Shown here one piece after another: positions 1-53,769 of a DNA stretch of 64,000 bases. This stretch comes from Geosiphon pyriformis (Eukaryota > Glomeromycota > Glomeromycetes > Archaeosporales > Geosiphonaceae): assembly GCA_016748015.1 (NCBI GenBank), contig JAAOMT010000577.1, forward strand, positions 125,881 through 189,880, given 5' to 3'. A model generated the notes under the pieces. It was given only the letters and a program-made list of their open reading frames with translations, had not been told where the DNA came from and made no database searches. The stretch's first letter is position 1. Every line of letters begins with the position of its first letter. Both the position numbers and the translations under genes were made by a program.

Positions 1-1103
1 TTTCCCTTAAAACTTGAAATTTGGGCTTCACAATTGAAGGCCTGTAGAAGTTTTTGACAGTTTTTAGAATTTAGCTTAAAATTACTACCTCGAACCTTAG
101 TAAAATCACGAACTAAGTTTTGCAAATTTTCAATATCTTTGGTAAGCTGAACCGTGTTATTAGGATCATCATCTTTCCAACTGATAGGGGTTGCGTTTGA
201 AGAAGCTTCCTTAGATTTCAAGTCCAAAGAGTGCACTTTTTTTTGAAGATTTTCAATTTCAGATCGAGCTTTGATAGAACTCTCTGAAATATTTTCTGAT
301 TGTTTAGATTCTTGAACAAAATTACTTTTGTTAAATATATTGGTGGTGGCAGGATGCAATAAATCCAGATCATTAACACCATCATCATAATCTTTAATAT
401 CTTTAAACTCATTTAGGATAGATTTTGACTTTTTTTTTCCCTTCAAAACGTGACCAAAGGAGCGAAAAGCGAGAATGCGTTGAAGACATATCCAGCGTAG
501 GCAGCGAGTTTCTGAAATGCGAACTTTGCTTAAATAATCGTTATGAAAACTTTTCCAGTTTTTGATTACACCAAAGACTCTCAAATTCTGAAAAATATAT
601 TCCATTATTTGGTTCCTTTTATTCTCATCGTTTTGTTTTCGAGCTTTAGCATATGACTGGAGTAGATCTTTCATGAGTTTGTTGGATTCCATCTCTATAT
701 AGCCCTCTTGACAACACTCATCTAGTATATCTCGGATTGTAAAGAATTTGGGTAATTGCGCAGGTTCCTCAACATCTGCAACCATAATGAAGAGTAATAC
801 ATATTCCTCAATAGTTTGCGCGATTCCATAAGTGTTGAAAATTATACTATAATGGTCTTGAACGCAAATGTCACCGTTCCCTTCAGGAAGGGGATGTTGA
901 GGGCGAGTGTGATCGCGATTGTAATAATATCCAGAATTTTTTCTCGAGTTAGAGGGCTGAGTTTGAGACCGGTGGCTTGAACGGTTTTGATGAGTCTTCT
1001 CTGGCTTGTGTACTAATTCATACTCTTGTTCACCTCCTGTGAAATTTTGATTTTGGTTCAAATTTTCAGGGGCGTACTTGCGAAGTGGGTCAGTTTGAGC
1101 CAT
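1..1103 (-). CDS. Uncharacterised protein with coiled-coil/DDD-NN domain, 3' end outside window
   Basis: One open frame of 367 codons runs from an ATG at 1103 down to base 1 without a stop, so the C-terminus lies outside the window. The N-terminus (about residues 1-75) is polar and low in complexity. The middle (about 80-230) looks helical and I do not recognise it. Residues from about 303 onward (NATPISWKDDDPNNTVQL and following) match a segment of the gene at 51015-52964 nearly motif for motif, so the two are paralogous at least in this domain. A nine-A run near 431-439 is read in frame without disruption. The frame stays open a little upstream of the ATG to a possible acceptor, so an earlier exon is possible. 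Function unknown. Confidence 0.7.
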   Translation of the reverse strand, partial: MAQTDPLRKYAPENLNQNQNFTGGEQEYELVHKPEKTHQNRSSHRSQTQPSNSRKNSGYYYNRDHTRPQHPLPEGNGDICVQDHYSIIFNTYGIAQTIEEYVLLFIMVADVEEPAQLPKFFTIRDILDECCQEGYIEMESNKLMKDLLQSYAKARKQNDENKRNQIMEYIFQNLRVFGVIKNWKSFHNDYLSKVRISETRCLRWICLQRILAFRSFGHVLKGKKKSKSILNEFKDIKDYDDGVNDLDLLHPATTNIFNKSNFVQESKQSENISESSIKARSEIENLQKKVHSLDLKSKEASSNATPISWKDDDPNNTVQLTKDIENLQNLVRDFTKVRGSNFKLNSKNCQKLLQAFNCEAQISSFKG

Positions 1104-1545
1104 TTTGGAGAGAATATCCAAGACCTAAAAAAGCCAAATGATTTATTGATGACTAGATGTTAAATCAACATTATTGCAATCAAAATCAAGCAAATAAGTA
1201 ATCTCCGCATTTGGGTGTTTATGGCCACAGATTCCGTTATATTTGCTGTTATTAAGATATCTTATAGGAGATTATTATTTGAGATAATTGTAAGATGATT
1301 AGTTGGCATTTCACATGACCACTAGTCAATTAGAAATTGAGAAACTTCATCTGATAATCAAAAAGAAATTAACAGGGGAAATGTTATTTTATTTTTATTC
1401 TATATACACAATTATTATATTTTGGGATCTTTTTACAAAGATTCTGTATCTAATAAGGAATTCTAGTGACATTTTGGATAAAGTACAAGAATTTGTAAAA
1501 TTTGCTAACTTCAAAATTGTACTTGCATATTATGGGGAGGATAAA

Positions 1546-38151: not shown

Positions 38152-40043
38152 TCATTGAAATAAAAAAAATTTCTGGAAACCTGAGCTGGCACACAACAGA
38201 TCTAACTTCCCCAAAACAGAACCAACAGAAGCCTTAAGAACCACCAATTTTGACTTAAGACTGCCAACCTTGGAAGTTAACACTCTCGTGCTACTTGAAC
38301 TAAGAACTAAGACATCATCAGTAGCAGGAGAAGAAGGTGCAGAATAAGCATCAGGAATATTCAAAACCATATCCAAATCCACACTAGAATCTACAACTGC
38401 AGACAGAACTGGAATAAGAGATTGAAAAACAGAAGTTAAGGGGCTCTGTTCAGAAATGGGTGCCAAAAGCACTAATACAATACCATTCAACTATTTTACA
38501 ATGTTCGACACCTAATCAGATAAAAGCTCAAGAGAACACATCAACATTAACAAATGTGCATCTAAAGAAGAGTTCAATAAAGTAATAGAGAGACATTTGC
38601 CATCAGAATCCATACTAACAATAGGAAAAAAACCAGAGCCTGCTTCGGCAGAGTGATTATGAGAGGTGGATACAGCCAGAACTACTTGAGCCCAAGACCT
38701 GCCACCAAAAGCAGCCAGACGAGAGATGAGAACATTTTTCTTGACATACAATTTAGCTAAATGAAAATGAATAACCTCTGAAGTGTCTTTTTTAAATAGT
38801 TTGACTGGTCTAAGAAAAGATGTAATTGTGGCATCACACTTTAAAACAGAATAACCAAATTTTCTACAATGTTCATACTAAACCAGATCTATTCTTGCCC
38901 AAGAAAGTTTGACACCACTAAATATTGGCTCAATGTAATAAGCAGACTCCAGATCTTCCTCAGATTCAAAGCCAATCACAGCACAATAGATTCTATTGCC
39001 AGTATTAACAGAACAATTAATCATACATGTTTTTCCACCAGTCTTATCCAAGAGAGTACCAAGATCATGTGCCATTGTTCTCACTGGTAAAGTAAACAAA
39101 AGTGCTCTAAACCAATTTTTAGAAGCCTATGTCTTGTAATCTCTCACAGCCATAGCCACATTCACAGAATTTTTCCCAATGAGGAAGGACCATCTAGATG
39201 CCAGTTGCTCAGCCTGATCTGAACTAGCAAATTCTACTATGGTCTTTTGCCACATGTCAATTAATTAAACTCTGATCGACTTAATATCACCAAATTCAGA
39301 TACTGCAGTAATGATTATTTCCTTAGGCGTATCCATGGGAATTTCCTTTATGATCACAGCCCAATCTGAATGGATACTTTGTTTTTTGAGATTGGTATTT
39401 ACAGAGATACCTTTTTCTCTGGCCAATGAAGTGGCCATATTCATGCTTTTTTCTGAAGTGAAGGTAGATCTAATGATCTTCTCAAATTTTGAGGGAGTAG
39501 TGGCCCTCCCAAAACCATTGATAGTTGAAAATTTTTTTCTAACAAGCTGAGTTTTTGCTGTGACTAATTTGTTTTCTACTGCAGAAATATCAATATCCAA
39601 AGCAAATGATTTTTTGACTGACACTTCTATTGGAGTTTTGATGATCTTTGGATCAATTCACTTTTTTTCCAAAGAGATAGACAAGTGAAAAGGAAGCACA
39701 ATTTCATCATCATCCATAGTAAAATCAGGAGAGCCAAATACTGCACCAATATTAATACATTTTGCCTTGAGAGTGGTTGCAGCCAAATCCAGGAGAGACC
39801 TATCATGTATACCAGCCATGCTTACATTCTCATCATCACCAGACAGACTATTCACATCAGAATACACACTATTATCAGGCCCAGAATTACTCAAGGAGAT
39901 ATCTTTCTCATCACTAAAGTGTTTAATATTCCCAAGAACTACTTTTTTTTTTAAGTGAAAGAACCACCAGTAGAACCATGAAAAGCTTCTTTGAGTGTCT
40001 TCTTTTTTGACATATTACCACCTGAAGCAGTCTTTAAATCCAT
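38152..40043 (-). pseudogene. LINE ORF1 (gag-like, nucleic-acid-binding), broken
   Basis: It starts MDLKTASGGNMSKKKTLKEA at 40043. After a ten-A run the frame shifts and continues to 38152. Readable blocks include SDWAVIIKEIPMDTPKEIII, the R-x-L-like segment FTLPVRTMAHDLGTLLDKTG and GGKTCMINCSVNTGNRIYCA. A degenerate zinc knuckle (YEHCRKFGYSVLKC, first Cys lost) is followed by FGGRSWAQVV. Several stops interrupt it, for example at 39265-39267 before LIDMWQK. Such proteins coat LINE RNA. The ORF2 start lies just downstream. Confidence 0.8.
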
Positions 40044-40070
40044 AACAAAAGGGTTATTATTTAAAAAAAT

Positions 40071-42339
40071 GTTGAAAAAACTAGCAAGAAAAAATTAGAA
40101 AACTTTTTTATTAGAAAATGCACTTTTTAAGGATTGTTGGAAGTAAGAGAGAAAGAAGTTTTTATTTATCAAATTTTATTTTAAAAATTAAGTTAATAAA
40201 ATAAAACCTAAACTATTTTTTTTATTTTTTAAAAATATTATTAATTTTAATAATATTTAAAAAATAATTACAATTTATTAAAAGTTTTTTAAATTGTTTT
40301 TATTTTAATACTTAATAAAATTAAATATTATTAAATTTGTTAAATTTTTGTTTATTATTATTTTTAAAATTACAAAATTTTTAATAATATTTGTTTTATT
40401 CTGTTTTTGCTATTGTAATATTATTTATTATTTTTTTAGATGTTTTTTTCATAAAATTAAAATATTTTAAGTATTTTTAATAAAGTTTTTAATATTAAAT
40501 TTAAGCTTATTGGTTTATAATAATATATTAATTTGTATTTTAAGTTTTTTAAGCTATTAAAGCTGTTTTTGCTTGTTAATATTATTGATAAAAAAATAGC
40601 AAAGTTATAAATAGTTAAAAAATAACCAATCTTACAAATTAACAAAATAATAATCTTAAAACTGAAAAAATTGACATAATAACAAATATTAACTATAGTA
40701 ATAATAATTATTTATTAATAATAACAGCAATTATTATTTTAAAATAATAAAAATAATATATTATTTTATAGAATTTTAATTATATATTTATATAATAGTT
40801 TTTAATATTAAAAAACAATAATTAAAGAATTATTAAAAAAAATTTCAAAAAAATTTCAAATAATAAATAAAAGTTTAATTTAATCTATAAAAAAATTTAT
40901 TAATAATATTATAAAAAAAACTATTATAAAATTAATTATAATTTAAATCAAAATTTTAAATATTACAATATTTAAAAATTATTTTTTTTAATACTAATAA
41001 GTTTTAGTAATAAAAAATAGTAAAATTATTGTTTTTATAATGTGTTTAAAACCAAATTAATTAATTTTTTTTGGCCATATAGTTTTAAAATTAATAATTT
41101 AATTTTTTATAATAATTAATATTAATAATTTATTATTATTACTTTAAATTTAAAAACGTTCTTAATAATATAATTATTAAGTTTAATATTTTGTGTAAAA
41201 GTTGTATTTAATAAAAAATTCTTAAATTAGTGTTATTATAAGTATTAAAGTTTAATTTATTTAATTTTAATTATACTATTTGGTTTTTTATGATGTTTTT
41301 TTAAGTTTTTATTGTATTTAAAGTTTTTGTTAATTAGTTTATTAATTTAATGTTTTATATTAAAATTGCTGTTTTTTAATATATATATTTATTAATAAAA
41401 TTATTAAATTTAAATTTGTTTTATTTAAATTTATTGTTATAAAAATTGGTTTATTAATAAATTTAGTTGTTTTATTTAAAAAAATTTATTTATAAATATC
41501 AAAAAAAACTTATCAATTAATTGTATTAATAACAGAAAAAAAGTTATATTTTATATAAAAAACTAAAAAATAAATAAAAAGTTACAAATTACTTAAATAA
41601 ATTTAAAATATTATGTGCTTTTAATTTAAATAATAAACTATATATAAATAATATATAAATTGTATTTATTGTAAAATATTTTATATAAATAATAATAAAA
41701 TTATACTTTATAATAATTAATGCCAAATAAATTTTTTGATAATAAAAACAAAATTAAAAAAAAATCTATATTTATATATTATACAAATTAAATTATTAAT
41801 TAATAATTAATTTAAAATTGTATTTATTAAAAATAAAGAAATTCCATTAAAAAAATTAAATATCTAAAAAAGTTTTAGAAATTTAACAAATTAAAATTAA
41901 TTAAACACAATTTAAAAATAAAGTTATAATAAATATTACTTAAATAATTTTAATAATAAAACTTTTATTATTAAAAATATGTTAAATAGTTTTTTAAAAA
42001 AATAAAAAAATAAATTTATGTTAAAAATAATATATTTTAAAAAATAGTATTATTTATTATAATAAATAAATTTAAAAATAAATAAATATTTTTTTTAAAA
42101 ACAAATTATTAATTTAAATAAAATAAAAAATTACTTAAAAATTAAAAAAACATAAATAATTATAATATTAATATAAAAACATATTAATAAATATTAAATT
42201 TTTTGTATTAATTAATATTATAAAAAACACTTTTAAAAGTTTTAGTTTAATATATGTAAAATTTATAAGTTTAGAAATAATATTTTTTAAGAATATTTTA
42301 ATACAATATATAGATTATTAACTTTCTATAAAAAAATAT
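40071..42339. other. Extremely A+T-rich gene desert
   Basis: Low-complexity A+T sequence upstream of the LINE. No protein-like frame; the minus-strand frame 40457-40645 is compositional. Confidence 0.5.
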
Positions 42340-43112: not shown

Positions 43113-44548
43113 TTAAAAATTATTCTCACGATTGCCATCCGATAGATAATTATGCTCTTCTTGTTCAACCCAGTTATCGTCACGTGTACTATAGGGTTTT
43201 TCTGACCAATTCGTTCTGAAATCATATGGGTTTTCATCATTATACCTATCGTCACGAGTTATCTTTCGATCACCTTCAATAAAAGGCTGAATGACACCAA
43301 AGGAAGGGCCCGAAGCATGACTATTAGAAGAAAAAGCAGCATTATTTGTAGCAACAGCTTTTTCATCAACCATTCTACGTGCTTGTGCATCAGTTAAATC
43401 AGGATACCGTGTATATGGTGGGGGAAGTTCATCTTCCAGAAATTGGGCAACATTATTAGATATTTGAGCTTGATTGGGTTCAGCAAAGCTTGTTATTCGT
43501 GGCGGAATGTTCAATGAAGGCCCAACTGGACCAACCGGGACAATGGGTAGATGTTGAAGAGTTGCATGAACAGGTGATTGGCCAGGTTGTGGATTGTAAT
43601 TATGCCCCAATACTATTTGAATATTTGGTAAACTTTGTTGTGGATGAATAGGTAATTGAGGGGCTACTATGGTTTGAGATGGTGATGCTGGAACCGATAT
43701 TGGTGGTGCTGATGGTGTATGTGGCAATAATGTGCCACCTGGAGGAGTTGTCGGGGGAGATATTTGTTGTCTTGGTGGAGCTGTCGTTTTTGGCGACGTT
43801 ATAGTTATATTAGGTGGGTCTATTAGTGGTGATTTTGTAGGTCCATTTGGTGTTGGAGGTTGTTGAGGTGGGCTTGGTTTCGAAGACAAAGTTGCTAAAG
43901 TAGCAATCGGAGGTGGTCGAGACACTTGACGCGCTATTTGAATGGATTCAAAAATTAAATCTGATATATGCAGAAAAAAAAATCCAACGAAAACAATAAA
44001 ATTGGTCACAAAATTTGAAAAAGAGATTACCATTATCTTTACAAGTTCGAGAACAATAAGGCGAATTTAGAAAGCATGGTTTAGCCTGACAGTATTGACA
44101 AATGTTGAGAGTATTTCCTTGACGGTTGGAACCTGAACCACTTGCAACGAATACACCCGGCATTTTTCCTCCTTGTCCAGAAACAATCATGTATGAACCT
44201 TTATGAGGTGAATGCCGAAATCCCGTTTGCCCATTACGTACTGGAGCTTTTCCTTTTGGATTTAAAGCTTCGGCTTCATTTTTACAAGTTTTTCCACAAT
44301 AATTGATCCTCTGTCCTCCTATCAAAGCCCTAGGCATTAGGTTACAATTTATGCAAGGCTCCACCATACCTTTAATAAGATTGATTATAAAAATACAATC
44401 AAATTGATTTAATAAAGGTTCCTCCAATTCCTATACCTTTGTCAACCGCGGCCCTTCTACATTTATTCGAACAAAATTCCGCAATTTCTCCTGATAAATT
44501 ATCCACATAAACAGAGCCGGAACGGCAAGCAGCGCAAAGTTGAGCCAT
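43113..44548 (-). CDS. Triple zinc-finger protein with proline-rich tail
   Basis: Exons 44548-44437, 44369-44031 and 43933-43113 join in phase into 423 residues. Three similar Cys4 modules of the form C-x2-C ... [FY]-C-x3-C lie at C5/C8/C26/C30, C43/C46/C62/C66 and C128/C131/C143/C147. Residues about 152-330 are Pro/Thr/Ser-rich, followed by ELPPPYTRYPDLTDAQARRM and a charged tail. The modules match those in the N-terminus of the PARP-like gene at 46739-48132, but no ADP-ribosyltransferase domain is attached here. It is divergent from the PARP-like gene at 44803 with 254 bases between start codons. Function unknown; the fingers suggest protein or nucleic-acid binding. An alternative 3' exon is noted at 42672. 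Confidence 0.78.
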
Positions 44549-44802
44549 GGTGTCAAATGATTTGACCAAGAATGAAGCCTTTATATTCCTACTATGTGAA
44601 GCCGTGAAACCATTCGATTGGAATAAATTATTTTTTTGTTTGTAAGTACAAATTACCAAGTTTAGACTTGGTAATACCTCAGAATTAGACTTCGAATGAG
44701 TATTTTTAGAACTACTAGTTTTAATTACCAGTTGACCCGTGTAACTTCTAAAAGTCTCATCTTTCTTTAACCCTGCTGTTGATTTTCCTTTTATTCAATT
44801 TC
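44549..44802. promoter_or_regulatory. Candidate bidirectional promoter
   Basis: Only 254 bases separate the start codons of the divergent zinc-finger and PARP-like genes, so both promoters and 5' untranslated regions must lie here. The arrangement is seen in the sequence; co-regulation is inference. No specific binding site is recognised. Confidence 0.45.
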
Positions 44803-46069
44803 ATGCCTTTACCACACAAGAAGGCGCCGAAAAGTTTAGTAAATTTGTTCGATGACTTGGAGTCTTCCGACGAAGACGAACAAGTTGAAACTACGAATAG
44901 TGATTCTTGGAAACCTTTCCCAAAAGAAGAAAATTCAATAGGTCTTGTACTGACACGAGAAACTTGTACATGTGAAGATTGTGAAAGGGGTAGGTGTTTT
45001 TTACTTGGGGCAGTGAAATGTGAGATACAGATAAATTTGTCTGATCCAGTGAATCACCAGCAATATCACCCAGGTATCGGCCCGATTTTGAAACATTACG
45101 AGAAATATTTATATCAGAAAAATTACTTCGTCATGCGGCTACATTCGCCGGCACCCGAAAAATTACCGAAAAAATCATTGATCATTTCCATAATACATGG
45201 GGACATCCATTACACATGGGGGTAATAAAATATTTCAACTTTCCTACTTTTAGAAATTCAGAAAATTAGGTATTAACAAAAATCATAAAAAAAAGTCTCC
45301 GGATGTGCAATATGTATCCTTCATGAAATGTGACCGAAATCTCTGTAAACGTTGGGATGAGTATATGTCAGAGTTGACACTGGTGTGTAATAACCCCAAT
45401 GTGAAACCATTATGGCATGGGACTGGCGTTAAGTGCAAGATTGAGGAGGGAAAAGGCCCGTGTGACCCGGATTCAGAAGATAGTTGTGCTTCATGTAGTA
45501 TACTGACAACGGGATTCGATATAAAGAAAAGTGGCTCAGCTAACCTGTTCAAACGGTATGAAAATTTCAAATTTAGACTGGTCTAATATTTCGTCTTTTG
45601 ATGAATTGAATTTTTAACTTCTAAATGTTTTGCATCTCATCGGGCAGGTTTGGAACCGGTATTTATTTTGCTCCTAATTCATCAAAAGCGCATAGTTATG
45701 CAACACCACGAGCAAAAGATGATTCATACACAATTTTATTCTGTTTCGTCGCCTTGGGGAGGTAAAATTGTAATGAAACTTTTATTTTCCTGATATTTCA
45801 TTAATATTTCCTAATTTAATTAATATAGATGTCATAGAACAAAAGATGACCTGCCCAAATTAATCGGTAATGAAATATTTAAGGAAAAATGTTCAAAATT
45901 TAAAAAGCCCCAATTCTCATTAGTTTGATTATCAGAACCACCTTATCCATGTCATTCTGTACATGGGCTTGTCGGCTCACGGCTAAACTATGAAGAATTC
46001 GTAGTTTATAGTGGGGACGCAGTGATTCCTTTTGCTGCTGTAAGCTACAAGATGAGGAATGTGAGATAA
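44803..46069 (+). CDS. PARP-like ADP-ribosyltransferase
   Basis: Six exons (44803-44989, 45061-45221, 45254-45555, 45648-45761, 45829-45866, 45936-46069) join in phase into 311 residues. Residues 1-62 are acidic and contain TCTCEDCER. The catalytic domain follows: LWHGTG with His171, FGTGIYFAPNSSKAHSYA with Tyr223, and NYEEFVVYSGD with Glu288. This is the H-Y-E triad of PARP-type enzymes that transfer ADP-ribose from NAD. An insertion between H and Y carries C177, C186, C194 and C197 and looks metal-binding. The first acceptor (45060) is the least certain junction. It is convergent with the second PARP-like gene. Whether it makes mono- or poly-ADP-ribose is not visible; Glu at the third position permits either. 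Confidence 0.85.
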
Positions 46070-46738
46070 CAAAATATTCTTCTCGTTTGAAAGCAAGACA
46101 ACATTTATTTATCGATAATGGTGGATATAGAACCTGCTGATTGTTTGAATATCTTGAACATTATTTAAGTAGTCTCACCAAGATTTATCGATGAGTATAT
46201 TGTTCATTTTCCTGCCATCATTATGCTTTGGCCCACTTCTATATTTAATTTATTGAATGGCACAAATTTTTCTTTTGATATTTGTATATTTAGATCAGCG
46301 CGTAAATTTTGTATTCGAAAATTGTCTACATAAAATGGCGAGGGAACGGAAGTTTGAAGAATATACAAAGACTAGTACAAATATTTATAAGTGTTGATAT
46401 ATATATATATTAGCTACCAACTAAATGTAACATATTTTTTCAGACATAGATTATGATGATAATCATACATCCACGAAAAATTTGTAGAACCTTTACTAAG
46501 AATAGTGAGTTCTCGTTAACAAATGAAAAAAGAATAAATATTATATTATTCAAAATAGAAGGGGAGATGGGATTGGAAAATCTAGACCGCTTTCTCGAGA
46601 TTATGTTACAAAACTTGAAGAATCGTATTGCCGCAAAATTAATCTTCAACTAATTAACTTTCTTTCATTGATGAGGATGGGTCCAAAATTTGAGATTCCT
46701 CGTAGATAACAACATATCGCCAGAATGAACTCCCTCAA
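46070..46738. other. Shared 3' region of convergent PARP-like genes
   Basis: About 670 bases between two stop codons. A TA repeat lies near 46400. The small frames here have no family features. Confidence 0.5.
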
Positions 46739-48132
46739 TCACGCCCGATATATGATTAGATACTGGGGCAAACAAGCAGCTTCATTATACACAACAATCT
46801 CATCATAATTTAAATTCCCGGTATCACTTGGCTCCCCTAATATCGAATCATATCCATTCGGAGGCCGAATGAGATGCGTATCATCAGTTGTCTGGGGGAA
46901 TCCTTTACCTACAATCACCCGATTCAGTAACATAGCTTTATATCTCAATCCATTAAAATTTTTCAAAGATTTCTCGTTATAGTCATCGGATTTCGACGAA
47001 GTACCCGAGAAATAAAGACCACGACCGAAACGTTGAAACGCTAGGCTAATTTCACCGGTACCGACAAACCTTAATTTGTACCCTTCTTTAATGATGCAGC
47101 ATATGGCACAAGTAATGTCGGAGCAAAGTGTTGCGGTTCCTAATAGGCCTATTAAACAGCTCCTAGGAAAATAATATGTTTATTTTAAATTCAAGAAAAA
47201 GTCATAATATTATATTCTCGAAATTTACATTTTCGTGCCATGAAACCGCCGTTGCTCGTTACCGGCAGTCATTGTTCGTCTCCTTAGACCATCACCTTTT
47301 GGGAACGGTTTTCCCCACAATTGCTGTGCTTGTTCTACGGCATCCCTATATTGGTTATAACGTTTGATTAATGTCTCGCTACAATAAATTTTCCATATGG
47401 CAGTAACTTCAGGGATAGGTTTGTGCGAGTGACGCCAAGATTTTACAAACTGGTTGGAAATATCTTTGAATTTTTGGCCACTCGTTGGTAGATTGAGAAG
47501 ACAAGGAGCTAGGAAATTCCCAAGATAAACTTTTGAATACTATTTGATTCGCATAACTATATAAATCTTTGCATGAAAGAATGAAACATACCAATGCGCT
47601 TTACATGTTGTTCACATGCATCACGACAAAAATCTTTGCCTTGTAATGAATTCTCTTTTGCGCACATCAGGCATAACTGACTACTGCGCTCAACTACCAT
47701 CGATTGCCAATTTGGCGTCTCATCACGACACTTTCTCGAACACCATAATGATCCCTTATGGAGTGGTTTCTCCTAAAAATATTTAAGTAAAATTTTGGAT
47801 CAAAAACTGTTGTAAAAAGATTAACTAAGCTCGATTATCTCTTTAAAATTTACCACCTTACAATGCATACACTTTGGCAGGTTACGACACCTCGTCCACC
47901 CACAATAAAGTGAGTTGGTGATCTGTGGAAAGGTCTTGCATTTTGTACAAGGTGGGTTCGCTAGACCAGCTACCGAGGCTTCTTGACGACACTCGTCACT
48001 GCAATATTCACTTGGATAACCGTCAGGGTCAGTGTCAACTTCGTTGCTAGTACAGTAAAGGCATATATTGACACTGGAGGCGTGGTGGAGATGCTGATTA
48101 TATGTCGAATGCCGAGCGGTTTTTACATCCAT
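46739..48132 (-). CDS. PARP-like ADP-ribosyltransferase with four zinc fingers
   Basis: Exons 48132-47857, 47772-47592, 47508-47229 and 47162-46739 join in phase into 386 residues. Four Cys4 modules occupy residues 24-145 (C24/C27/C44/C48, C62/C65/C77/C82, C88/C91/C103/C107, C126/C129/C141/C145). After a helical segment with QFVKSWRHSHKP, the catalytic domain has RRFHGTKMSC (His242), FGRGLYFSGTSSKSDDY (Tyr296) and NLNYDEIVVYNEA (Glu367), so the H-Y-E triad is complete. A Cys4 insertion (C248, C259, C264, C267) sits where it does in the neighbour at 44803. The fingers probably direct the enzyme to a target. It is head-to-head, about 1 kb apart, with the NADAR gene. Confidence 0.87.
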
Positions 48133-49174
48133 TTTACTTTGTGAATATTAGACGAAAGCTTAAAAGTTCAAGTGCAAACCAAATTTGGAAAAGCAGCTTT
48201 GCTGGAAAAGAATAAGGTTACCGAAAAAATGAAAGTTATATTTTTCAAATTAAAAGAAAAAGTGTGCTTCCGAGGTTTAAAAAGAATAATTATTATGAAG
48301 CATATAACGACGGATACTAAAATTAAAGTGTGCTTCAAATTGAATCTTGTAAATGGCTTCTCCTGAATCGGCAAATTTGTAACGCATTTTTTTAAGAAAT
48401 TTAACAAAGAACATAGGTCAAATTTTAGTACACAACAGTACGGCTGTTGATAATGTCTTATCCGATTCTATTGCTTTTAAGTTAAGTAGTATAAATGCTT
48501 ACTAATAAAAAATAAAAATGAATTTTTTGGGAAATTCAATATTTAATAAATATATATTTTTAATATTGTCGCCCTATTTTTAGATAATGGTCATTGACCT
48601 AGCCAACATTTTTTATTCTTTTTTATATTGCTTATTTTCTTTACTTGTTTTTTATATTAGGTATTTAAACATTATTTGTAATAAAAGATTATTTGTTAAC
48701 ATTTACATATATATTTTTTCTTTTTAAATTAAAAAGCATAATAATCTTTGTTATTAATTTTAAAAACTGTCAAGTAAGACATAAAATAATAACAGTAATA
48801 ACAATTATGAATTATTTCTTTTACTTTTAAATTGTGATTTTATAAAATTAATTTGCTTTTATATTTTGGCGAATGGCGAATTGCGAAAGATGACATGTCG
48901 ACCAAGTCCATAACCTGCTAATTTTTATAAGACATATTTAGTTAATCTAGTCTTTTCTCTTTTTATATGTAAATATTTTAATAGCATAATTAATTGTTAT
49001 CTAAATAGAGAAAAATTATCGCTCAACAAGATTGTTCTTGCGCATATTACACATTATCCTATTCGGGTAAGTTTCGATATTGTGTCACTTCGACCATTTA
49101 AACCACTCTTCGTTTGCTTAAAATTTGGAAATAACATAAAGCTAACATTAATTTATACCATTTCACTATTTCAA
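48133..49174. other. Divergent intergenic region, PARP-like and NADAR genes
   Basis: About 1 kb of A+T-rich DNA between the starts of two divergent genes; it must hold both promoters. A less A+T-rich patch lies near 48870-48910 (GGCGAATGGCGAATTGCGAA). No coding region is supported. Confidence 0.45.
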
Positions 49175-50609
49175 ATGGCGACACTTCAACCTAACTCAAG
49201 TAAGACTGAAATTTCCGCACAACTTCAACACAAGCAACAAGTTGTTTACAATAACCAAATAAACCAAGGCACAAATGACGAAGGCATCACATTAATCCCC
49301 TGTAAGGTGTTAGATTGTAACTGTGCACACTTTGCAAGGGATCGCTCAGACAAGTTAAGTTGTTGTGAGTGTGAGCATCACATTAAAAAACATCTTCAAC
49401 CTGGTAAGCATCGGTTCAAGGTGGTTTTAATTTTCTCAGCTCAGCTTGATTCCTATTTTTTGAGAGTTTTGTCTAGTAGAAGGCGCAAATTTGAATTCCT
49501 TAGGCCTTAAGCATTCGATTATTATAAAAACATGGATCATGCGTAAACATACCATAATCCTTTCTTTTCTCGTACAAAATAATATCCTGAAAGAGTTCAT
49601 TGAAATCGCAGTTAAACGCGCCCAACTAAATCTTTTCTCATCAATTAGACCAATTAATAACAGACGAGACCATTAGTGAATTTGCAGTACAAGGAGCTAC
49701 ACCGCAAACCCCTCCTAAGATAGAAACATTGACTGGTATTTGACGCGTTCACCAAATTTAGTGAACTCTCGATAAATTTAGACGTTAATTATTTTTTACT
49801 GACTGAAAAAATTCTCAAAAGAACCTCCAGAAGGTGAAATTTGGTTTTATAATCGGGATAACCCTTTCTTTTTCTTGACAAATTTCATTGAGGGTTATCC
49901 AATCAAAGCTGCCTTACCTGACAATATATTTGATGGAGATATGGCACAGAATCCAAACACAACACGGCATCCATATTACTCGCAAGAAAAACTTTGGCCA
50001 ACCAGCGAACATCTTTTCCAAGCAATGAAATTTAAAGACACTAATCCTGATGTCTCTGAGAGAATTCGAAGATGTCGAAGTGCGCGTGATGCATTGAATA
50101 TGGCACGAAGACATCAGGAATTTGTTGATCCAAAATGGCAAGAAAGAAACGTTGATGCAATGTTATGGGTTGTTAAACAAAAGTTTTGTCAACATCCCGC
50201 TCTTGGGCAAGGATTATTAGAGACTGGTGACCATCATTTAGTCGAACATACTGAGATGGATAAATTTTGGGGGGATGGTGGAGACGGGAATGGAAAAAAC
50301 AACTTGGGAAAAGTGTTGATGAAAGTACGAGAATTACTTCGGGAGAAATGGGATAAAAAAAGGCAACAATCTCCCCCTCAACGGGCTCCATCACCGAATA
50401 ATAATGGAAGCGTAAATCAAAATTTTTATCCATCTGGTCCGCCACCTCCCATACCTCCAAAACCCCATCACCATTATCAGCAACATCGCCATAATAATCA
50501 GCCATACATACATTTTTCTCAACCAGCAAGTCCTCATCAAATCCAAAATCAACAACACCAAATGATGATTGACGCTACTAATGGTGAATGGCATAATTAT
50601 CATGGATGA
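49175..50609 (+). CDS. NADAR-domain protein (YbiA/DUF1768-like)
   Basis: Exons 49175-49403, 49649-49735 and 49822-50609 join in phase into 367 residues. Residues 43-73 form a Cys/His-rich module (C43, C48, C50, C63, C64, C66, H68, H69, H73). The NADAR domain spans about 110-285: WFYNRDNPFFFLTNF, WPTSEHLFQAMKF with Glu168 and Gln172, and DKFWGDGGDGNGKNNLGKVL with Asp252 and Trp255-Gly256. Family members bind NAD/ADP-ribose-type ligands; some cleave N-glycosidic bonds and remove ADP-ribose from nucleobases. The C-terminal 80 residues are Pro/His/Gln-rich and probably disordered. The placement beside two PARP-like genes suggests a role in ADP-ribose metabolism. Confidence 0.9.
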
Positions 50610-51014: not shown

Positions 51015-52964
51015 TCAAGTTCTTTTCCATAATACTCTATTGTTCTGCACAAGCCGAGTTTCTACTTGAGCTTTACATAACACTCTGTTACCGTGACTTG
51101 ATATCAATGGAAACGAACAAATTTCGACTTCAAGTTCACCAGAATTTTCATCGGCAATCTCAGGTCCACTCATAACAGTTCCTCTTACTGGTTCTCCACT
51201 AGCAAAGAACTCTCTGAATTCAGGAATAGGTTCTTGAGCTTGGAGACGCATGTACAAGTGCACAACTTCCTGCACCATTGTGACTGCCTCATCACGATAC
51301 TGTTGATTCATCTTTGCATCGTATTTAATGTCACGATGATTTGTCATGATGTTCATACATTTTTTAACTAGTGAATGGATAAAAAAATGGGTTCGTGATA
51401 ACTCATCAAACAATGGAGGTGTTTGAACTAAATCATCATTATTTGGGTTATCAGTAGAAGATGGGGTTGGTTGTTGAGTTTCTTTAGATTTCTTGCAAAA
51501 CGCGCGTGCGCCTAGGACTGCATAAACTTGTTGTCGAATTTTAACTGGAGTTATTCTCGTGAGATCATCGTTCCCTTGCCGATGTTCCCGTAAAAGTTCA
51601 ATCAGCGTGCTAAGGCGCCGTGTAGTTGTTACAATGTCATATTCAATATGATCATATGGCTCGGAAACCTTAGGCTTACTTTCATTGATTGTCTCATCAT
51701 TTCCATCAGCGTTTTTATTATTTTCGTTAATTTGTTTTCCATTATTACTTCCAGAGGCATTTTCCTCCTTTTGTTTTGTTGCTTTACTCTTAAAGTAGGA
51801 TTCAATATCACGAAATAATGTCTCTAATGTAAGACGTTGAAGCGCTGCACTTAATATTTTCTTTGCATTTTTGTGAGTAATTTGTGTGCGACAATTATAG
51901 TGAGCTAAAAGTTTCCCTCCTTCAACCTCGTTAATTTTGATTCCATATTTTTTACCTTTCAATGTGGTAAAGTTTGCCAACATTTGTTGCAATTCTTCGA
52001 TCGATCGTTTGAGCTGAACTGAATTGTTCGAATCATCATCACCCCAACGCACATTTGTTGCATTACCAAGAGCTGACTGATAGTGTGATGACTCCTCCTT
52101 CAACCTCCGCACTTCTCTCTCTAAATGCTGAATATTAAGATCCTTTTCATCACGCAATTTCTGCATTCCTCGTCTTTCCTGTTCGAAGCGTCCAGCCATA
52201 GCATCTCTTTCCTGTAACAGAAAATCACATTCTTGTGTTTTTTCTTCCATCTTTTTAATTTGCATCTTTCTATCCTTTTCCAATAAAATTATTTTCTTAC
52301 GATCTTCCTTGCTTATATTTTGAAACCTGAATAATTCATGTACAAGGTGGACGTTATATTCTTCCACGCTTAGATCCTTACTACTAATTGAGATCTCGTA
52401 TCCATCTTCGTTGTCCTCTGAATCTTCTACCGAATGATTATTCTCTTTGTTAGATGGAGGTTGAGCATTTCGTTTGCTCCCGGGATTGTTTCCTGAATGA
52501 ATATATTGATATCAATCTAAAAGTGATTCATGTAAAGAATAAAGTGATAATAACTCTAAAAACCATTTATTACCCGTTATGCTCGAAAAGAAATTGGGCA
52601 AGACGAATGTTTTGCCTTCATTTCGTGTTGTCTTGGGCGATTTTGGATGTTGGGAAGTGATTGAATTTTGATGTACTTGTTGTTTTGTGGCTCGAGATCC
52701 CATAATACTGGCACTACGAGTTACAGCGGTTGAAGGACTTTTACCTTTGCGTGAGAAATCACGAGGATCTCTGTGGGTGGGCGAGTCAGCCATTACAAGT
52801 GATGGTGGACGTTGAGTTTTTGATTTTTGCTGTTCTTCAATGTCATTTTGTTGAGCTGGACGAGGGGGCGATGAATTAGAAGTTCCTGTTCCGCCTGAAT
52901 CATTAGCTTCATTAGATTTGTCTAGCTGAGCTTCGTTTGTCAATTCCTGATTGACAGTAGACAT
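51015..52964 (-). CDS. Coiled-coil protein with DDD-NN domain, uncharacterised
   Basis: Exons 52964-52574 and 52492-51015 join in phase into 622 residues. Residues 1-170 are polar and probably disordered. About 200-270 form a strong coiled coil (LEKDRKMQIKKMEEKTQECD and following heptads). About 274-345 hold the domain NATNVRWGDDDSNNSVQL, then LANFTTLKGKKYGIKINE, shared with the gene at 1-1103. About 370-415 is a Lys/Asn/Glu-rich linker, and the C-terminal 210 residues look helical (LSRTHFFIHSLVKKCMNIMT) ending in a beta-rich tail. I do not recognise the family. Two copies in one window suggest a multigene family. Confidence 0.85.
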
Positions 52965-53769
52965 TTTAGAACAAAAGTTTTAAGTTGAGCATGCTGCTGC
53001 TTTTGGGTTGAATATAATTGGCTATCAGTGTGGCTGACTATTATTGAATGTCTTTTATTTACTAATATAAAAATATTATGTTTTTTACTAAACTTGAAAC
53101 CACTTTTTAAACCATAATAAATATATTAATTTTGCTATAATTTATATAATACAATAAATAAGTGTATTCAAACCAATTTTATAAAATTAGCTTCTATAAT
53201 TACTATTTTTATTATTTCATTAAAAAATATTAGAATATTTTATTTATTTAGCAGCCTTCGGGTGAATATACTATATACGTTGACAGCAATTTTATATAAA
53301 AAAAGCAATTTACCAATTTTAACATTTTAAACAGTTTTTATAATGTTTTTGCTTAATTATCAGAATTAAAACACTTTCAGTAATTTTAATAATTGTTATA
53401 TTAATTTTATTTTTAAACAAAAATTTAAATTTCAGTAATTTGTCTTTAATTTTTTTAATTTAAACACATGTTTTATTAATTGCTATTAAGTAAAACAGAA
53501 ATTTCAAATCTTACATGTCTCATATTTTTATTTAAACTTTATTTTAAATACATAACTTAATATTATTTTTCAGTTTTGCTTTTATATTATTAATATTATA
53601 TATATATTTATTATATGCTTTTTTACAATATTTTTTGAGTTGTAAAATTGTTTATATTATATGTAATTATTTAAAAAAAAAAATTTTTATAACTTTTATA
53701 AGATCTTAAAATTTAAATATTAACAATAATAAAATTAAATTTTTATTTTTATTTTTTTATTAATGCTTT
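52965..53769. other. A+T-rich intergenic
   Basis: Upstream flank of the coiled-coil gene and then low-complexity A+T sequence up to the 3' tail of the next LINE. Nothing coding. Confidence 0.5.

What the first reader, a model, noticed from the sequence alone, without database searches (positions are those of the whole stretch)
43113..50609. Possible ADP-ribosylation writer/eraser gene cluster
Two PARP-like genes with complete H-Y-E residues (44803-46069 and 46739-48132), a zinc-finger gene sharing modules with one of them (43113-44548) and a NADAR gene (49175-50609) lie side by side. PARPs attach ADP-ribose. NADAR proteins bind or hydrolyse NAD/ADP-ribose derivatives, and members of the family can remove ADP-ribose from nucleobases. 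Clustering of transferase and hydrolase in a fungal genome suggests a linked function, perhaps DNA/RNA ADP-ribosylation or a self-protection pair. The domains are seen; the functional link is inference.
Basis: partly seen in the sequence, partly recalled or inferred. Interest (0 to 1): 0.82.

Follow-up and report, generated by a model that had tools for sequence, protein, structure and literature searches.

The report
Fungal PARP genes beside NADAR genes
In one fungal genome, genes for enzymes that attach ADP-ribose (PARPs) sit back-to-back with genes for enzymes likely to remove it (NADARs), not once but at two separate places, which suggests a eukaryotic write-and-erase pair like one known from bacterial toxin-antitoxin systems; the chemistry is untested.

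Summary
Window 43113-50609 holds four intact predicted genes: a zinc-finger gene (C), two PARPs with complete H-Y-E (A, B) and a YbiA-family NADAR (D) with the catalytic Glu/Lys/Glu and a predicted fold matching E. coli YbiA and the ADP-ribose-bound Phytophthora NADAR. B and D are divergent (head-to-head), as are C and A. The new evidence is a second, independent pair. The 124.7-Mb genome yields only four NADAR matches (three intact). Another NADAR, on contig C354, is head-to-head with another PARP (377 bp between start codons); the two loci share no other genes. The macro, PARG and ARH erasers found lie on other contigs. The chance of finding a second pair is about 0.004-0.03. The two PARPs are only ~29% identical and the two NADARs ~39% and not sisters, so this is not a recent segmental duplication. 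I judge functional coupling somewhat more likely than not (0.55). That the mark is on guanine, or that the pair works as toxin and antitoxin, is not shown. NADAR D also passes the model for riboflavin-intermediate N-glycosidases, the main rival. No other Glomeromycotina genome could be searched. Verdict: new variant of a known kind (ART + NADAR pair).

The parts
43113..44548 (-). Gene C: zinc-finger protein (423 aa), three CX2C...[YF]CX3C modules plus a Pro-rich tail; exons 44437-44548, 44031-44369, 43113-43933
   Evidence: Spliced open frame; modules shared only with gene B in the window; one paralogue at C342:39018
44803..46069 (+). Gene A: PARP-fold ADP-ribosyltransferase, 294 aa, H154-Y206-E271; exons 44803-44993, 45074-45221, 45296-45555, 45648-45761, 45829-45866, 45936-46069
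   Evidence: intron positions shared with the C342 paralogue; PDB best match tankyrase 8e-7
46739..48132 (-). Gene B: PARP-fold ADP-ribosyltransferase, 386 aa, four N-terminal Cys modules, H242-Y296-E367; exons 47857-48132, 47592-47772, 47229-47508, 46739-47162
   Evidence: paralogue with the same fingers at C200; PDB best match tankyrase 3.4e-7
48133..49174 (.). 1042-bp AT-rich spacer (24.7% GC) between the divergent starts of B and D; candidate shared promoter region
49175..50609 (+). Gene D: NADAR protein, 367 aa, N-terminal Cys/His-rich module, YbiA-family NADAR domain (E168, K175, E247), Pro/His-rich tail; exons 49175-49403, 49649-49735, 49822-50609
   Evidence: model pLDDT 83, Z 16.6 to E. 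coli YbiA and 15.5 to Phytophthora nicotianae NADAR
51015..52979 (-). Neighbouring coiled-coil gene (not ADP-ribose related); a paralogue lies beside the A-type PARP on C342

Best explanation
The cluster is a eukaryotic ADP-ribosylation writer/eraser module. PARP B (and perhaps A) transfers ADP-ribose from NAD+ to a target chosen through its Cys-rich fingers, and the divergently transcribed NADAR D, kept next to it and probably co-regulated, cleaves an N-glycosidic ADP-ribose bond and so limits or reverses the mark. Shown by sequence: two intact H-Y-E PARP domains, one intact NADAR active site and fold, the head-to-head arrangement, and a second such pair elsewhere in the genome. Inferred: activity, shared regulation, and that the NADAR acts on the PARP's own product. 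A nucleobase (guanine in DNA or RNA) is the most likely NADAR-cleavable target because that is the activity known for NADARs, but I give that step alone only about 0.3.
For: The domains and catalytic residues are intact. D's fold matches the ADP-ribose-bound P. nicotianae NADAR, Z 15.5, an enzyme shown to remove ADP-ribose from guanine (PMC11543638). The genome yields four NADAR matches with two different queries: C387 (this one), C354, C381 (standalone) and C108 (degenerate). Two of the three intact ones are head-to-head with a PARP: here, and on C354 with about 377 bp between start codons. The two loci share only the PARP and the NADAR. The PARPs are of different subfamilies, 29% identical, and the C354 NADAR is closer to the standalone one (48%) than to D (39%), so a recent segmental duplication does not explain the second pair. 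With 16-40 PARP loci, a second pair within 5 kb has chance probability about 0.004-0.03 and two pairs 1e-5 to 7e-4. The macro, ARH and PARG genes found lie on other contigs, none beside a PARP. Bacterial precedents: DarT1-NADAR (PMC11543638) and YarT-YbiA (PMC11125620).
Against: Most PARPs in this genome (C200, C299, C342, C312 and at least ten C114-type matches) have no NADAR beside them, so NADAR is not an obligate partner. D scores above the cut-off for riboflavin-intermediate N-glycosidases. The B-D spacer is 1 kb, longer than a classic bidirectional promoter. NADAR activity on protein-linked ADP-ribose is not established, and no PARP of this fungal type has a known substrate. The chance test rests on one extra pair. 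No other fungal genome was searchable.
Confidence: 0.55

Rival explanations
1. Chance neighbours. The genome has many PARP genes, and PARPs ended up beside NADARs twice without functional meaning; tandem PARP expansion and repeat-driven rearrangement put them together.
For: PARP-like genes are numerous here, at least 16 loci, and most have no NADAR neighbour. The window is repeat-rich.
Against: A second head-to-head pair is expected with probability only about 0.004-0.03. NADAR and PARP are not homologous, so tandem duplication cannot pair them. The macro, ARH and PARG genes found are not paired with PARPs.
Confidence: 0.27
2. D is a metabolic enzyme that destroys reactive riboflavin-synthesis intermediates (YbiA-type N-glycosidase), and its PARP neighbours are irrelevant to it.
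For: D scores 99.9 bits on TIGR02464 against a cut-off of 73.7. Schuller et al. say plant and fungal NADARs relate to flavin-biosynthetic ones (PMC11543638).
Against: The genome already has a standalone NADAR on C381 that fits this model far better, 145 bits. D has an extra N-terminal Cys/His module, an insertion in the NADAR domain and a long tail, unlike a housekeeping enzyme. TIGR02464 cannot tell the two activities apart: YbiA itself, the riboflavin enzyme, also removes guanine-linked ADP-ribose (PMC11125620, PMC11833690).
Confidence: 0.25
3. A protective module of toxin-antitoxin type: B is harmful when active (for example modifying nucleic acid of viruses or transposons) and D protects the host, the eukaryotic counterpart of DarT1-NADAR. 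This is a special case of the best explanation.
For: It works like DarTG1 in layout and enzyme types. PARP subfamilies are expanded and fast-evolving, including a probably dead copy on C342 (H to R, no GxG before the Tyr), as is common in conflict genes. NADARs occur in anti-phage models.
Against: No DarT is present; B is a true PARP. D is of the orphan YbiA type, not the BC4488/DarT1 type (Z 15.5 to P. nicotianae against 7.7 to G. lovleyi NADAR). Other PARPs survive without a NADAR neighbour, so there is no sign of addiction. Toxicity is untested.
Confidence: 0.15

Closest known systems
DarT1-NADAR (DarTG1) bacterial toxin-antitoxin system (PMC11543638)
   Same: An ADP-ribosyltransferase gene lies next to a NADAR hydrolase gene; the NADAR catalytic Glu and Lys are conserved
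   Different: Transferase is a PARP (PF00644) with Cys fingers, not DarT; NADAR is YbiA-type (Glu in the last strand), not the Asp-type BC4488 family; divergent spliced eukaryotic genes instead of an operon
YarT-YbiA pair of myxobacteria (PMC11125620)
   Same: YbiA-family NADAR beside an ADP-ribosyltransferase
   Different: YarT is a Tre23/HYD1-like toxin, not a PARP; bacterial operon
Phytophthora nicotianae NADAR (PDB 8bau)
   Same: Eukaryotic YbiA-type NADAR; the same Glu/Lys/Glu and fold (Z 15.5)
   Different: Schuller et al. describe it as not linked with DarT; D has an added N-terminal Cys/His module, an insertion and a tail
PARP6/8-type (Clade 6) PARPs with a Cys-rich region (PMC4245714)
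   Same: Cys-rich motif before the PARP domain; one finger of B fits CX2CX9-19CX4C
   Different: No tree including PARP6/8 was built here; the PDB sequence matches rank tankyrase first

Membership tests
PARP catalytic domain (PF00644) | Pfam score above the curated cut-off (26.7 bits) | tested here: met
   A 49.4 bits, B 47.2 bits
PARP catalytic domain (PF00644) | H-Y-E triad | tested here: met
   A H154/Y206/E271, B H242/Y296/E367
PARP catalytic domain (PF00644) | ADP-ribosyltransferase activity | not testable with these tools
   Needs a biochemical assay
NADAR (PF08719), YbiA subfamily | Pfam score above the cut-off (35.1 bits) and YbiA fold | tested here: met
   111.9 bits; Z 16.6 to YbiA 2b3w and 15.5 to 8bau
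NADAR (PF08719), YbiA subfamily | Catalytic Glu and Lys after WPT, and Glu (not Asp or His) in the last strand | tested here: met
   E168, K175, E247; both Glu invariant and the Lys over 90% conserved among 26 NADARs; residues defined in PMC11543638
DarT1-NADAR (DarTG1) | Transferase of the DarT family | tested here: not met
   A and B match PARP PF00644 and no DarT model
DarT1-NADAR (DarTG1) | NADAR of the BC4488 type with catalytic Asp | tested here: not met
   Glu at that position; G. lovleyi NADAR is reached only at Z 7.7 against 15.5 for the YbiA-type P. nicotianae NADAR
Riboflavin-intermediate N-glycosidase (TIGR02464) | Score above the curated cut-off (73.7 bits) | tested here: met
   D 99.9, C354 97.1, C381 145.2 bits; does not separate the two activities
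PARP6/8 (Clade 6) | Cys-rich region CX2CX9-19CX4C before the PARP domain | tested here: inconclusive
   B's second finger fits, but no phylogeny with PARP6/8 was made

The most novel reading that the evidence does not exclude
A eukaryotic reversible nucleic-acid ADP-ribosylation system in which a Cys-finger PARP marks guanine bases of DNA or RNA and a dedicated, co-regulated YbiA-type NADAR erases the mark, kept as paired genes at two loci of a fungal genome.
Probability: 0.2. Interest if true: 0.88.

Novelty: new variant of a known kind. Interest (0 to 1): 0.62.

Why it matters
Schuller et al. and Cihlova et al. state that the roles of eukaryotic NADARs are unknown (PMC11543638, PMC11125620). 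Two PARP/NADAR pairs in one genome name a candidate writer for a eukaryotic NADAR, so the question can be tested with two purified proteins. If the product is ADP-ribosyl-guanine, it would be a reversible base ADP-ribosylation system native to a eukaryote, with writer and eraser encoded side by side.

Tried and rejected
1) A frameshift or pseudogene in PARP A: an apparent frame change near 45070 is explained by an 80-nt intron whose position is shared with the C342 paralogue. An earlier model with 44-nt and 48-nt introns gave stops and was dropped.

2) Second pair by recent segmental duplication: rejected, no shared flanking genes and non-sister NADARs.

3) Similar PARPs in viral contigs: none confirmed. 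The 33 viral NADAR loci have no PARP of this kind within 5 kb. The bacterial collection could not be scanned with the PARP alignment, which was too diverse.

4) Single-sequence fold of D: useless, pLDDT 42; repeated with 25 viral NADARs, pLDDT 83.

5) The extra domain before the C354 NADAR has no recognisable PDB relative by sequence and no Pfam match above cut-off; it was not folded, as it is not window sequence.

6) First chance estimate with 7 PARP loci was too optimistic; replaced by 16-40 loci after a further PARP subfamily turned up.

7) No paper in the held library was found that describes PARP-NADAR pairing in fungi.

Full report
WHAT IS THERE. The window is C387:125881-189880 of a 124.7-Mb, 406-contig genome. 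Four genes lie in 43113-50609. Reading exons by GT-AG sites, frame and homology gives complete open frames for all four. Their order is C (-), A (+), B (-), D (+). C and A start 254 bp apart, A and B are tail to tail, and B and D start 1042 bp apart. Exon GC is 40-43%, intron GC 23-33%.

THE PARPS. A and B pass the Pfam PARP cut-off and keep H-Y-E. Their nearest solved relatives by sequence are tankyrase catalytic domains, but neither has ankyrin repeats. A, B and three more PARPs of this genome share HGT-x3-C ... C-x2-C just after the catalytic His, probably a metal site (inference). B carries four Cys modules. Gene C carries three of the same kind and no catalytic domain, and no other ORF in the window has them. 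C could be a targeting or partner protein; that is inference.

THE NADAR. D matches NADAR at 4.8e-32. Its Glu168, Lys175 and Glu247 align with the residues shown to matter in NADARs (PMC11543638) and are invariant or over 90% conserved among 26 NADARs. A model made with 25 viral relatives (pLDDT 83) superposes on E. coli YbiA (Z 16.6) and on the ADP-ribose-bound P. nicotianae NADAR (Z 15.5), but only weakly on the DarT1-linked G. lovleyi NADAR (Z 7.7). D is therefore a YbiA-type, not a DarT1-antitoxin-type, NADAR.

A SECOND PAIR. The same genome was searched with PF08719 and PF00644 and with the proteins themselves. Four NADAR regions were found: this one, C354, C381 and C108; C108 has lost the Glu/Gly-rich active-site strand. 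On C354 a NADAR gene and a PARP gene diverge from start codons about 377 bp apart. Both are complete by sequence, though the splice models were assembled by eye. That locus shares nothing else with the window beyond PARP, NADAR and repeat-like pieces. The two PARPs are 29% identical and belong to different pairs in the tree, (B, C200) and (C354, C299), with moderate support. The C354 NADAR is closer to the standalone C381 NADAR than to D. So either the pairing arose twice, or one very old pairing was kept while everything around it changed. Both favour a link in function.

CHANCE. PARPs are common here: besides the seven loci first found, a C114-type subfamily has ten matches, several in tandem. 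For 16-40 PARP loci and gene space of one third to the whole genome, a second pair within 5 kb has probability 0.004-0.03, and two pairs 1e-5 to 7e-4. Only the first range is a fair test, because the window pair prompted the search. As a control, the macro, ARH and PARG genes found are on contigs without any PARP found.

HOW IT MIGHT WORK. Known NADARs cut ADP-ribose from guanine in DNA and RNA (PMC11543638, PMC11833690) or cut riboflavin intermediates. The simplest reading is that B writes a mark and D erases it. Guanine is the best-grounded target, but no PARP of this kind has a known substrate, and erasing protein marks is not established for NADARs. The metabolic rival is serious: D is over the TIGR02464 cut-off. 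However, C381 fits that model much better and is the likelier housekeeping copy.

WHAT IT IS LIKE, AND WHAT IT IS NOT. In layout and enzyme types it works like bacterial DarT1-NADAR and YarT-YbiA pairs (PMC11543638, PMC11125620). It is not a DarTG1 system: the transferase is a PARP, not DarT, and the NADAR has Glu rather than the DarT1-type Asp. I found no description of a PARP-NADAR pairing in fungi in the held literature, which does not prove that none exists.

LIMITS. Other fungal genomes, expression data and assays were out of reach. Splice models are predictions. Six-frame searches of the genome may miss divergent genes, so the PARP and NADAR counts are lower bounds.

Noticed in passing
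C354:1981264-1983680 (L011:5264-7680): The PARP-paired NADAR on C354 has a long disordered N-terminus and a ~150-aa domain of unknown fold before the NADAR; a similar domain (25% identity) precedes the degenerate NADAR on C108. No Pfam match above cut-off and no significant PDB match.
   Followed up: partly
C114:253.9k, 285.9k, 303.0k, 304.6k; C95:69k; C318:797k, 814k, 866k; C304:158k; C360:738k: An expanded PARP-like subfamily with repeated N-terminal Cys modules (HGT..C..C..CGMCGI), in tandem on C114; at least one member (C318:814k) looks truncated.
   Followed up: partly
C342:96043-96828 (L039:4707-5837): A paralogue of PARP A with the catalytic His changed to Arg and the GxG before the Tyr lost: probably a dead or decayed enzyme.
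   Followed up: partly
window 51015-52979 (-) and 3-1124 (-); C342:79k, 89k, 94k, 545k; C366; C360: A coiled-coil protein family of about ten members that shares contigs with PARPs (C342, C387, C360); on C342 one sits directly beside the A-type PARP.
   Followed up: partly
window 40001-42000: A 2-kb stretch of only 9.9% GC upstream of the cluster.
   Followed up: no
window 49301-49390: The Cys/His module at the N-terminus of NADAR D has only one weak relative elsewhere in the genome (C355:92216, 36% identity, E 0.009).
   Followed up: partly
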